64,000 bases of DNA from positions 1,736,001 through 1,800,000 of the forward strand of contig NC_015172.1 of NCBI RefSeq assembly GCF_000190635.1, in the 5' to 3' direction. The translations under genes were made by a program, and so were the position numbers. Origin of the DNA: Syntrophobotulus glycolicus DSM 8271 (lineage in GTDB: Bacteria > Bacillota > Desulfitobacteriia > Desulfitobacteriales > Syntrophobotulaceae). Below are positions 11,075-48,925 of this stretch, one piece after another (the stretch's first letter is position 1; each line of letters starts with the position of its first letter). The notes beneath the pieces are model-generated. The model was not told the DNA's origin and made no database searches. It worked only from the letters and a program-made list of their open reading frames with translations.

Positions 11075-11133
11075 CAACATAGGAAAGAATCAAACGGAAA
11101 AAAGTACCAATACAACTGATGGAAGGAAAGCAT

Positions 11134-11694
11134 ATGAACAAAATCGTTAAAACAGTGATTGAATGGATCGTTATTATCGGTATCGCTTTTGGGTTGTCTA
11201 TTCTGATCAGAAATTTTGTGGTTGATACAAGGATTGTGCCTACCGGATCAATGCTACCCACAATTCAGGAGCAGGACAGACTGATCGTGGACCGTTTATT
11301 TTATCAGTTCCAGACACTGGGCAGGGGAGATGTCATCGTGTTCAAAGCGCCGGAAAAGTCCGGGAGTAGCGAAGATCTGGTCAAGAGAATAATCGGGTTG
11401 CCCGGAGAAAAGGTTCAGATTAAAAACAGTAAGGTTTATATTAATGAGGCAGAGCTCAAGGAGCCTTATGTTCACAATATCGCTGATTATGAATACGGGC
11501 CGGTAACCGTTCCGGCGAACAGTTATTTAGTTTTGGGAGATAACAGGTCTGAAAGTTATGACAGTCATAAATGGGGGTTTTTACCCGCTGAAAATATCTT
11601 AGGTAAAGTATTGATCAGATATTGGCCGTTAAATACAATAGGGCCGCTTGAAGGGCCGCCGGCTGATTATTTGAGTGCCAAGGAACAATCATAA
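11134..11694 (+). CDS. lepB: Signal peptidase I
   Basis: An active-looking type I signal peptidase of 186 residues, which removes signal peptides from exported preproteins at the outer membrane face. A single N-terminal membrane anchor (residues 8-26) precedes the catalytic Ser39 in PTGSMLPT and Lys84 in LVKRIIGLPGE, the Ser/Lys dyad of family S26. The C-terminal box LVLGDNRSESYDSH is canonical. The start at 11134 has GGAAGGAAAG ahead of it. The DUF815 ATPase starts 12 bases downstream. A second S26 homologue at 47128-47652 lacks the serine, so this is probably the functional enzyme of the two. Confidence 0.94.
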   Translation: MNKIVKTVIEWIVIIGIAFGLSILIRNFVVDTRIVPTGSMLPTIQEQDRLIVDRLFYQFQTLGRGDVIVFKAPEKSGSSEDLVKRIIGLPGEKVQIKNSKVYINEAELKEPYVHNIADYEYGPVTVPANSYLVLGDNRSESYDSHKWGFLPAENILGKVLIRYWPLNTIGPLEGPPADYLSAKEQS

Positions 11695-45369: not shown

Positions 45370-45984
45370 ATGGAAGATCTGTCCCAGCGTCAGCAGGAAA
45401 TCCTGGATATCATAAAAAGAGAAATAGCCAAAAAAGGCTATCCCCCTTCTGTCAGAGAGATTGGTGAAGCTGTCGGGCTAACATCCAGTTCGACAGTGCA
45501 CAATCATTTAAATACTCTTGAACAAAAAGGCTATATTCGGCGCGATCCCACGAAACCCCGGGCAATCGAAGTGTTGGACGGCTCCGGCAATAGCGAAATG
45601 ATGCACAATACCGTACATGTTCCCCTGCTCGGCCAGGTTACGGCCGGTCAGCCAATCATGGCAGTAGAAAATATTGAGGATTATTTTCCATTACCCTATG
45701 ATATGGTGAAATCCGATTCCGTATTCATGCTGCGCATCCAGGGCGAAAGCATGATCGAAGCCGGTATTCTCGATCATGATCTTGTTTTGGTCCGTCAGCA
45801 AAATACCGCAAACAATGGGGAGATTGTTGTGGCGATGATTGAAGATGGAGCTACCGTGAAAAGATTTTATAAAGAGAAAGACTGTATACGCCTCCAGCCG
45901 GAAAATTCCGGTATGGAACCCATCTATGCCCGGAATGTCACCATTTTAGGCAAGGTTATTGGGGTATTCCGGCTGGTTGTCTAA
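45370..45984 (+). CDS. lexA: SOS repressor LexA
   Basis: A full-length LexA of 204 residues. The winged HTH (1-70) includes [20 protein letters not shown]. The autocleavage site is Ala92-Gly93 in VTAGQPI, and the Ser/Lys pair is Ser127 (GESMIEAG) and Lys164 (ATVKRFYK). It represses SOS genes until RecA stimulates self-cleavage. The start at 45370 has GGGGAGG; a longer frame reaching through the intergenic region is rejected because it runs over the LexA boxes. LexA boxes upstream indicate autoregulation. It ends overlapping the convergent ddl gene by 4 bases. Confidence 0.97.
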
Positions 45985-47063
45985 TCTGTGACGTTTAGCC
46001 GGTGAAATCTTTCCAAACCAAGCCGGATCAGCCTGTTCAGCAGCTCGGGATAAGAGACTCCTGTTGCTTCCCATAATTTTGGGTACATCGAGATATTGGT
46101 AAATCCGGGTAAGGTATTGATTTCGTTGACAAAGATTTCCTCGGTATCAGTAACAAAAAAATCCACTCTGCCCAAACCGGAAGCATCAACCGCTTGAAAA
46201 ACCGTAACAGCGTATTCCTGAAGCTTGTTTACGGTTTTTTTATTTAATTGGGCGGGGATAATCAGCTTGGAATCATCGATATATTTTGCTTCATAATCAT
46301 AAAATTCTTTACACGGGATAATTTCACCGGGGACGGTAGCCTGCGGGGTTTCATTTCCCAATACGGCAAGCTCAATTTCCCTGGCTTTGACTCCTTGTTC
46401 GATCACAACCTTATCATCATAAGCCGCAGCGAGCTTCAAAGCCTGACCAAGATCGGACTCTCGGCTGACCTTAGTGATCCCTACACTGGAACCCAAATTA
46501 GCAGGCTTGACAAAAACAGGGAAAGATAATTCCGTCATTACCTTCGTGCGGATACTGTCCGGATCATTGTCAATCTGGTTTTTTAACACTGTAATATGAG
46601 GTACGATAGGCAAGCCGGCCTGGGCAAAGACCGCTTTCATCCTGTCTTTATCCATGCCCAAAGCCCCGCCTAAGACACCTGAGCCAACATAAGGAACACC
46701 GGCTATTTCAAATAAGCCCTGAATAGTTCCGTCCTCCCCTTTTGGACCGTGAAGCACCGGAAAAATAAGATCAAATTTACCGTCACCAGGAAGTGTGTTC
46801 CCGGAAACCGGGATAAAACGGGGATTGGCCGGATCAGTGACTAAGGTAACTTGAACATCGTGACTGGAGACTGTGCCATTGTTCAGCTTCCAGGTCTGAG
46901 GATCAATCCCCCAGTACCATTGACCTTTTTTGGTTATTCCTACGGTTAATATTTCATATTTCTCTTTATCTAGAGCCTGAATAACCGAGGCGGCCGAAAC
47001 CAGGGAAACTTCGTGCTCCCCGGATTCTCCGCCAAAAATGACAAGAACTTTCATCTTAGGCAT
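45981..47063 (-). CDS. ddl: D-alanine--D-alanine ligase
   Basis: A 360-residue ATP-grasp ligase that makes D-Ala-D-Ala for the peptidoglycan precursor. Signatures: [17 protein letters not shown] at the N-terminus, [28 protein letters not shown] (ATP), GRVDFFVT and [11 protein letters not shown] (metal ligands). [11 protein letters not shown] is typical of Ddl rather than VanA. The start has GGGGGAG. It is last in the ynbB-S26-ddl unit and convergent with lexA. Confidence 0.96.
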
Positions 47064-47127: not shown

Positions 47128-47652
47128 CTACAAAAAGATCTTGATTTTTGAAAGAGGCCAGTAACAGATCAACACTTTGCCTTGAACAAGCCCCGTTTCC
47201 ACTAAGCCGTTAAATCTGGAATCGTCTCTCATATGTCTATTATCATTCATGACAAAAATATGATTTTCGGGAACAAGGACCGCCGGCAGATCAAAGGTTG
47301 TTTTTTCCGGCTGGTAAGGCTCATAAAGAGGCTGGTTATTGATAAAGGTCAGTCCATTTCTGATTTCAACGGTATCGCCTGAAAGACCAATGACTCTTTT
47401 GATCAAAAGCTTTGCATTGTCCGGTGAAGAGTATGAGACGATTTCTCCTCTTTTCCAGATATCCGGCCCTTTATAAACGGCAACCATACTTGAAGCAGGA
47501 AGCGTCGGCTGCATTGCCTGATCCTCTACTGTCAGCAAACCGAAGCAATAGGTTTTCAGAACCCAGGACAAGGCAAACAGAATTAAAGATATTTCAATAA
47601 TATCTGACAGATAGGTCAAGAAAGATTTTTCCGTAGTTGTTTTTTTGAGCAT
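47128..47652 (-). CDS. S26 signal-peptidase-like protein lacking the catalytic serine
   Basis: A 174-residue signal peptidase I homologue with N-terminal membrane anchor (residues 17-33). Family motif order is kept: VEDQAMQPTLP aligns with the usual GxSMxPTL, but the catalytic Ser position is Ala46 (codon GCA, 47515-47517). Lys85 (LIKRVIGLSGD) remains, and the last box reads VMNDNRHMRDDSR with Gly changed to Asn. It should therefore be inactive as a Ser/Lys peptidase. The rest is well conserved, so it is not an obvious pseudogene. The start at 47652 has GAGGCG; a TTG five codons earlier would overlap ynbB. Located between ynbB and ddl. Confidence 0.85.
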   Translation of the reverse strand: MLKKTTTEKSFLTYLSDIIEISLILFALSWVLKTYCFGLLTVEDQAMQPTLPASSMVAVYKGPDIWKRGEIVSYSSPDNAKLLIKRVIGLSGDTVEIRNGLTFINNQPLYEPYQPEKTTFDLPAVLVPENHIFVMNDNRHMRDDSRFNGLVETGLVQGKVLICYWPLSKIKIFL

Positions 47653-47659
47653 AATCGCC

Positions 47660-48925
47660 TCAAGCAAGAAATCCCTTTTCGGATAAATTAAGAGCTGCTA
47701 AGATATTGGCCAGTTTAACGTAGTCAAAGGATATCCCTCCCTGCATATAAGCAACATAGGGTTCACGTATCGGCCCGTCTGCAGAGAATTCGCTGGTCGC
47801 TCCCTGGATAAATGTTCCACCCGCCATGATCACCTCGTCGGAATAGCCGGGCATTGGCGCAGGCAGTGGCAAGACATGAGAATCAATGGGGGAGCCCTTC
47901 TGCAAGCCTTGGCAAAAGGCAATCATTTTCTCTTTAGAGCCAAGCCGGACAGCTTGAATCGTATCTGATCTTACGGCAGCCGGTTCGGGATGAACGTCAA
48001 AACCCAGACTTTGCCAGAATACGGAGCTGAATACGGCGCTTTTCAGTGCTTCCCTGACGGTTAACGGACTCAGGAACAGCCCCTGGTATAAAAGGCGCAG
48101 GTGATCCAAAGTAGCCCCTATCCCTGTGCCAAGACCGGGAGCGGCAAACCTGTTGGCGGCAAGCTCCACCAGTTCTTCCCTCCCTGCGATATAACCACCG
48201 GCGGGAGCAAGAGTTCCTCCCAAATTCTTAATTAAGGAACCGGCCATAAGATCGGCTCCTACATCACCGGGCTCCCGCTCCTCAACCAATTCACCATAGC
48301 AATTATCAACAAAAATTTTGATGTAGGGATACTTTTCCCGCGCATAACCGGTAAAGGCCTCAATTTGAGCAATGGTTACGGCATTTCGCCATTCATAACC
48401 CCGGGAACGTTGAAGGATAAACAGTTTTGTATTGGGTTTTACGGCTCCGGCTAAAAGATCAAGCTGAATCTCACTGTTTTTATCTAACGGAATATGATCA
48501 AAATCTATGCCGAATTCCTTAAGGCTTCCGATATTCGTTTCTTTAAGGCCGATCACCTTTTGCAAAGTATCATAAGGCATGCCGGTTACTGATAAAAAAT
48601 GATCTCCCGGACGTAAAAGACCAAAGAGAGCGGAAGAAATCGCATGAGTACCGGAAACAAACTGGTGACGGATCATCGCCTTTTCCGTTCCCATAATATC
48701 AGCCACGATATTGTCCAGGTTTTCCCGACCGCTGTCCCCAAGCCCGTAACCGGTTGTACCGGAAAGATGATATGTAGATATTCCGGATTTTTGAAAAGCG
48801 GCCAGGACCTTCTGATGATTATTCTGGGACACCAAATCCAGTCCTTTGGTATGATTGCTGAGATAATTCTGGGCCTGATGCAGGGCAAGTTCGATTTTTG
48901 ACGGAAGATGATTTAAGTTGATCAA
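47660..48925 (-). CDS. ynbB: Methionine gamma-lyase-family PLP protein (YnbB, 'aluminium resistance')
   Basis: A PLP-dependent enzyme of 421 residues from the family labelled aluminium resistance or methionine gamma-lyase family. ISTYHLSGTTGYGLGDSGR, RHQFVSGTHAISSALFG, FVDNCYGELVEE and DLMAGSLIKNLGGTLAPAGG (with the PLP lysine) are family-typical. The start is TTG behind GGGGGTT. The gene order with spoVK upstream matches Bacillus spoVK-ynbA-ynbB, without hflX (ynbA) here. The in vivo reaction is not settled for the family. Confidence 0.88.
   Translation of the reverse strand: MINLNHLPSKIELALHQAQNYLSNHTKGLDLVSQNNHQKVLAAFQKSGISTYHLSGTTGYGLGDSGRENLDNIVADIMGTEKAMIRHQFVSGTHAISSALFGLLRPGDHFLSVTGMPYDTLQKVIGLKETNIGSLKEFGIDFDHIPLDKNSEIQLDLLAGAVKPNTKLFILQRSRGYEWRNAVTIAQIEAFTGYAREKYPYIKIFVDNCYGELVEEREPGDVGADLMAGSLIKNLGGTLAPAGGYIAGREELVELAANRFAAPGLGTGIGATLDHLRLLYQGLFLSPLTVREALKSAVFSSVFWQSLGFDVHPEPAAVRSDTIQAVRLGSKEKMIAFCQGLQKGSPIDSHVLPLPAPMPGYSDEVIMAGGTFIQGATSEFSADGPIREPYVAYMQGGISFDYVKLANILAALNLSEKGFLA

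What the first reader, a model, noticed from the sequence alone, without database searches (positions are those of the whole stretch)
47128..47652. Signal-peptidase homologue with catalytic Ser replaced by Ala
Everything else in the S26 pattern is kept (anchor, MxPT after the active site, Lys85, DN-R box), but the nucleophile is Ala46. A T-to-G change (TCA to GCA) would explain it, and the GDN box also reads NDN. A well-kept but dead peptidase beside ddl and ynbB could be a substrate-binding decoy, a regulator of the true signal peptidase (encoded at 11134), or a freshly inactivated gene.
Basis: partly seen in the sequence, partly recalled or inferred. Interest (0 to 1): 0.62.

Follow-up and report, generated by a model that had tools for sequence, protein, structure and literature searches.

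The report
Conserved catalytically dead signal peptidase
A membrane-anchored relative of the enzyme that trims secreted proteins appears to have lost its cutting chemistry in the ancestor of one family of anaerobic bacteria, yet it has been kept in the same chromosomal place under strong selection, so it probably does a job that needs no cutting.

Summary
In detail: window 47128-47652 (-) encodes a 174-aa type I signal-peptidase (SPase, S26) homologue with Ala46 at the nucleophile. The host is Syntrophobotulus glycolicus (finished 3,406,739-bp genome). It is not a fresh mutation. An orthologue lies beside ynbB in 17 of 25 genomes of its family (9 of 11 genera, probably including Dehalobacter), forming one clade (100/99). 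Nucleophile states there are S5, E4, G3, A2, T2, D1: seven changes on a neighbour-gene tree.
The whole clade, including members keeping Ser46, has lost two more catalytic-centre residues: E. coli Gly272 is Asn (16/16) and Ser278, which supports the catalytic Lys, is never Ser (0/16). Canonical relatives keep both. Catalysis thus probably failed in the clade's ancestor, and the nucleophile then drifted.
Non-Ser pairs stay under purifying selection (dN/dS mostly 0.09-0.21), about as strong as on the active paralogue. The sister family carries a canonical SPase in the same slot; an intact SPase here is at 11119. The model is confident (pLDDT 90.8); its best PDB match is SipA, a known dead SPase with parallel Gly272 and Ser278 losses.
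Verdict: a conserved SPase pseudoenzyme; its binding role is inferred.

The parts
47128..47652 (-). pseudo-signal-peptidase gene (174 aa), 'NDN' type clade of family f1
   Evidence: orthologues
47515..47517 (-). codon 46 GCA (Ala) at the nucleophile position (E. coli Ser90)
   Evidence: alignments
47398..47400 (-). codon 85, Lys (E. coli Lys145, general base), kept here; lost in 3 of 17 orthologues (R, V, E)
47245..47247 (-). codon 136, Asn for E. coli Gly272 (NDN instead of GDN); Asn in 16/16 clade members with this region
47227..47229 (-). codon 142, Arg for E. coli Ser278 (Lys-supporting serine); never Ser in the clade (0/16), Ser in 41/41 canonical
47164..47166 (-). codon 163, Cys; clade-specific (15/16), Arg in 32/41 canonical SPases
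47545..47628 (-). N-terminal membrane helix (residues 9-36), with E20, A27, S29, W30 invariant in the clade
47658..47661 (-). GAGG Shine-Dalgarno-like motif, 5 nt before ATG 47652
47660..48925 (-). ynbB-type gene directly upstream, same strand; conserved neighbour
45981..47063 (-). ddl, conserved downstream neighbour
11119..11694 (+). canonical SPase paralogue (PTGSM / VKR / GDNRSES), the housekeeping type of this family

Best explanation
This is a membrane-anchored signal-peptidase pseudoenzyme. The ynbB-ddl slot held an active type I SPase in the ancestor of the order, as it still does in the sister family. In the lineage leading to Syntrophobotulus, probable Dehalobacter and seven further genera, a second active SPase (the 11119 type) carried the housekeeping work, and the slot copy lost the small Gly and the Ser that position the catalytic Lys. 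With catalysis gone, the nucleophile was no longer constrained and changed repeatedly to Ala, Glu, Thr, Gly or Asp, while the fold, the membrane anchor and the structural box residues stayed under purifying selection. The loss pattern, synteny, selection and predicted fold are shown here. Lack of activity is inferred from residues and from the SipA precedent. The working mechanism is inferred: it most likely acts by binding, holding exported precursor chains or signal peptides in the retained SPase cleft without cutting them, at the outer face of the membrane.
For: One clade of 16 rows with support 100/99, placed beside the sister family's slot SPases. Gene order SpoVK-ynbB-SPase-ddl-lexA-LysM-M23 shared by f1 and f2; f2 slot copies are canonical. 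Asn at Gly272 16/16 and no Ser at Ser278 (0/16), also in Ser46-bearing members; 104 related sequences outside the clade keep S/K/G/S. Nucleophile position among the more variable sites (rank 20 of 155), with 7 state changes on each of 400 bootstrap trees of neighbouring genes. dN/dS: E46 pairs 0.086-0.207 (one pair with six changes 0.57), T46 pair 0.128, G46 pair 0.133, S46 pair 0.131; LepB in the same genomes 0.065-0.152. AF2 pLDDT 90.8; top match SipA 4n31_B Z 19.5, rmsd 1.8 over 130 residues. SipA also has Asn for Gly272 and Arg for Ser278, has no detectable peptidase activity, and its Asp in place of Ser can be mutated without effect (PMC4049620).
Against: No activity, binding or expression data. 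The general-base Lys is kept in 14 of 17 members, more than expected if the site were wholly free. Five members keep Ser46. For S. glycolicus itself no close relative exists, so selection since its own Ser loss is not directly measured; its row deviates at 8 of 50 otherwise conserved columns, mostly conservatively, and it has a 4-residue deletion. Positions near the nucleophile and base that are conserved in canonical enzymes (Pro43, Asp82) are also lost, which weakens the peptide-holding version of the mechanism.
Confidence: 0.62

Rival explanations
1. Also a dead enzyme, but it acts on the true signal peptidase: a non-catalytic partner that binds LepB (11119) through the membrane helix and tunes its activity or stability, rather than binding substrates.
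For: The clade occurs in genomes that carry a second, canonical SPase; membrane-helix residues E20, A27, S29, W30 are invariant, while positions around the active site are partly lost.
Against: The same helix residues are largely shared with active f2 slot SPases, so they need not mark a new interface. The two genes are not linked. Two f1 genera (g5, g11) manage without it.
Confidence: 0.22
2. It is still a protease with altered chemistry, for example Thr, Ser or Cys163 with Lys85.
For: Lys85 kept in 14/17; Ser or Thr at position 46 in 7/17; one clade-specific conserved Cys.
Against: Ala, Gly, Glu or Asp at position 46 in 10/17; Lys lost in three; Lys-supporting Ser lost in all and Gly272 replaced by Asn, which the SipA paper says would clash with the Lys. 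No nearby Ser is conserved (only Ser29 in the helix and structural Ser145). Cys163 is Thr in one member.
Confidence: 0.08
3. It is a decaying leftover of a redundant SPase, without function, at least in S. glycolicus.
For: Fast evolution and a long stem (1.57); the gene is absent from g5 and g11; long S. glycolicus branch (1.74).
Against: Intact frames in all genomes; dN/dS mostly 0.1-0.2 in three independent non-Ser groups, near that of LepB; clade-specific residues (N136, C163) are nearly fixed. The S. glycolicus slot branch is long, but so is its neighbour-gene branch (0.51), so its relative rate (about 3.4) is not above that of other members.
Confidence: 0.08

Closest known systems
SipA/LepA of Streptococcus pyogenes (4n31; PMC4049620)
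   Same: SPase I fold with a non-Ser nucleophile site, Asn at Gly272 and Arg at Ser278; no detectable peptidase activity; the best structural match of the model (Z 19.5).
   Different: SipA has also lost the Lys (Gly85), lies in pilus loci and is needed for sortase pili. The present clade mostly keeps Lys, lies between ynbB and ddl, and occurs in genomes without any sortase match, including S. glycolicus and two single-contig g3 genomes.
SpsA of Staphylococcus aureus (PMC12445088)
   Same: A second SPase I homologue lacking two catalytic residues in a genome with an essential active one.
   Different: From general knowledge, spsA sits next to spsB; here the intact copy is unlinked. SpsA was not compared by sequence here.
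Canonical type I SPases of the sister family in the same slot (e.g. L049, L050)
   Same: Orthologous by gene order and tree; same membrane anchor and fold.
   Different: They keep Ser, Lys, Gly272 and Ser278 in every complete copy read.

Membership tests
Type I signal peptidase (S26A), active enzyme | S26 sequence profile and fold | tested here: met
   Pfam E 5e-30, TIGR02227 118 bits; AF2 model matches SpsB Z 18 and E. coli SPase Z 16-18
Type I signal peptidase (S26A), active enzyme | Ser nucleophile in box B | tested here: not met
   Ala46; Ser in only 5/17 clade members
Type I signal peptidase (S26A), active enzyme | Lys general base in box D | tested here: met
   Lys85 present; 14/17 in the clade
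Type I signal peptidase (S26A), active enzyme | Gly272 and Ser278 of box E | tested here: not met
   Asn136 and Arg142; Asn 16/16, Ser 0/16 in the clade
Type I signal peptidase (S26A), active enzyme | Cleavage of signal peptides | not testable with these tools
   needs an assay
SipA-type pilus assembly factor | SPase fold with Ser, Gly272 and Ser278 replaced | tested here: met
SipA-type pilus assembly factor | Catalytic Lys replaced | tested here: not met
   Lys85 kept here
SipA-type pilus assembly factor | Works with sortases in pilus loci | tested here: not met
   No sortase match in G000, G002, G012 (single-contig genomes) among others; neighbours are ynbB, ddl, lexA
SpsA-type inactive SPase | Lacks catalytic residues beside an active-type SPase in the same genome | tested here: met
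   Canonical paralogue at 11119 and a second at genome 457425
SpsA-type inactive SPase | Direct sequence relationship to SpsA | not tested
   SpsA was not fetched

The most novel reading that the evidence does not exclude
A family-wide SPase pseudoenzyme has taken on a sortase- and pilus-independent, non-proteolytic role in export or envelope assembly of Syntrophobotulus and probable Dehalobacter relatives, arising by in-place loss of catalysis at an old SPase locus. The repeated free drift of the nucleophile after loss of the Lys-supporting residues would make it a natural series for separating the binding and cutting functions of signal peptidases.
Probability: 0.45. Interest if true: 0.6.

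Novelty: new variant of a known kind. Interest (0 to 1): 0.46.

Why it matters
Automatic annotation calls this protein 'signal peptidase I' well above its curated cut-off, although its catalytic centre is gone, so SPase counts in these genomes are too high. It is a clean case of a protease turning into a pseudoenzyme in place: same locus, active-type sister copies, six or seven independent ends of the nucleophile if its loss cannot be reversed, and selection that does not depend on the nucleophile. It gives material to ask what signal peptidases do apart from cutting, in relatives of organisms used for dechlorination and syntrophy.

Tried and rejected
Sequencing error or strain-only mutation: rejected (finished genome; 12 of 17 clade members non-Ser). 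Replacement by a nearby Ser: rejected, no clade-conserved Ser near the site. Sortase/pilus role as in SipA: rejected as the shared role, since the sortase search finds none in S. glycolicus and two single-contig g3 genomes. Loss of the housekeeping SPase in draft G023 (no LepB hit), which would have made the Glu46 copy the only SPase: the flanking match runs to the very end of contig C137 (19094), so an assembly gap is the likely cause. G003 also shows only the slot copy, but it is 77% complete. A single-sequence scan of genome contigs found no relatives; the profile scan found mostly canonical SPases. In a 398-genome sample of the phylum the top profile hits that were read are NDN only in this family, though only the best 30 loci could be read. 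Promoter and terminator scans were near the shuffled background. No annotated record was found for accession NC_015172 in the held collections.

Full report
What is there. The ORF at 47128-47652 (-) encodes a 174-residue protein with an N-terminal membrane helix and an S26 signal-peptidase domain. Codon 46 is GCA, so the nucleophile position is Ala; Lys85 is present; the GDN box reads NDN. The start ATG at 47652 lies 7 nt after the ynbB stop and has a GAGG motif 5 nt upstream. The window lies in a one-contig genome of 3,406,739 bases, the published length of the finished Syntrophobotulus glycolicus FlGlyRT genome (PMC3156405). The finding's observation is right, with one error: the serine matching E. 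coli Ser278 is Arg142 here, so not everything else in the pattern is kept.

Orthologues. Gene order SpoVK-ynbB-slot gene-ddl-lexA-LysM-M23 is shared where contigs allow. The sister families f2 and f3 have a canonical SPase in the same slot. In genus g11 two genomes have ynbB next to ddl without the gene, and g5 shows no SPase beside ynbB. A maximum-likelihood tree of 74 SPases puts the 16 distinct slot rows of this family in one clade (100/99) with a long stem (1.57), beside the f2 slot SPases, while the housekeeping SPases of the 11119 type form a separate old group.

Catalytic residues. At position 46 the 17 clade members have S5, E4, G3, A2, T2, D1. On a tree of concatenated neighbouring genes this needs 7 state changes, in all 400 bootstrap trees tried; counting only Ser against non-Ser the minimum is 4 if Ser can be regained, and 6 or 7 independent losses if it cannot. 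Two other catalytic-centre positions changed in the whole clade. Position 136 (E. coli Gly272) is Asn in 16/16 and position 142 (E. coli Ser278) is Ser in 0/16, against Gly 41/41 and Ser 41/41 in canonical relatives; 104 sequences outside the clade, from many phyla, have Ser, Lys, Gly and Ser at the four positions. The members that still have Ser46 share both changes. The structural residues Asp137, Arg139, Asp144, Ser145 and Arg86 are kept. In SipA of S. [quoted passage not shown] The simplest order of events is that catalysis was lost in the clade's ancestor and the nucleophile then drifted; this order is inferred.

Selection. Pairwise dN/dS (Nei-Gojobori, own script) is 0.128 for the Thr46 pair, 0.133 for the Gly46 pair (where Lys is also lost), 0.131 for a Ser46 pair, and 0.086-0.207 for the Glu46 pairs, apart from one pair with only six differences (0.57). 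The housekeeping LepB in the same genomes gives 0.065-0.152. Synonymous change in the Gly46 pair is near saturation, so that value is rough. Selection therefore does not appear to depend on Ser. S. glycolicus has no close relative, so its own branch cannot be tested this way; it differs from otherwise conserved columns at 8 of 50, mostly by similar residues.

Structure. The AlphaFold2 model from a 58-row alignment has mean pLDDT 90.8. The best PDB match by VIA-align is SipA 4n31_B (Z 19.5, rmsd 1.8 over 130 residues), followed by SpsB (Z 18) and E. coli SPase (Z 16-18). The closeness to SipA may reflect its small cap domain as much as shared function.

Mechanism. Shown: an old SPase locus, clade-wide loss of catalytic support residues, repeated change of the nucleophile, conserved fold and anchor, continuing selection. 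Inferred: no peptidase activity. Inferred more weakly: it works by binding, either exported chains or partners in the export machinery. A SipA-like pilus role is unlikely as the shared function because several carriers have no sortase match. A partner of LepB remains possible. Clade-specific Cys163 (15/16; Arg in most canonical SPases) is unexplained.

Known or new. Dead SPase homologues are known: SipA of S. pyogenes and SpsA of S. aureus (PMC4049620, PMC12445088). In the open papers searched I found nothing on this clade; most subscription papers are not held. It is a new variant of a known kind. The clade was seen only in this family in the samples searched, which were not exhaustive.

Noticed in passing
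window 47128-47652: NCBIfam equivalog TIGR02227 labels this protein signal peptidase I at 118 bits (cut-off 47) although its catalytic centre is gone; an annotation trap.
   Followed up: yes
window 47164-47166: Cys163 is kept in 15/16 clade members where most canonical SPases have Arg; role unknown.
   Followed up: partly
L141:3001-3447: An SPase from Acidobacteria bacterium 28-1 has Ala at the nucleophile but keeps Lys, GDN and Ser278: an isolated, separate case.
   Followed up: no
L057, L058, L062: Genus g11, which lacks the slot gene, carries two or three canonical SPases in tandem elsewhere.
   Followed up: no
L043, L044, L048: Three g7 genomes have about 1 kb between the slot gene and ddl.
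   Followed up: no
L108:454-1023: G009 (g10) carries an extra canonical SPase that groups inside the f2 slot SPases, perhaps by horizontal transfer.
   Followed up: no
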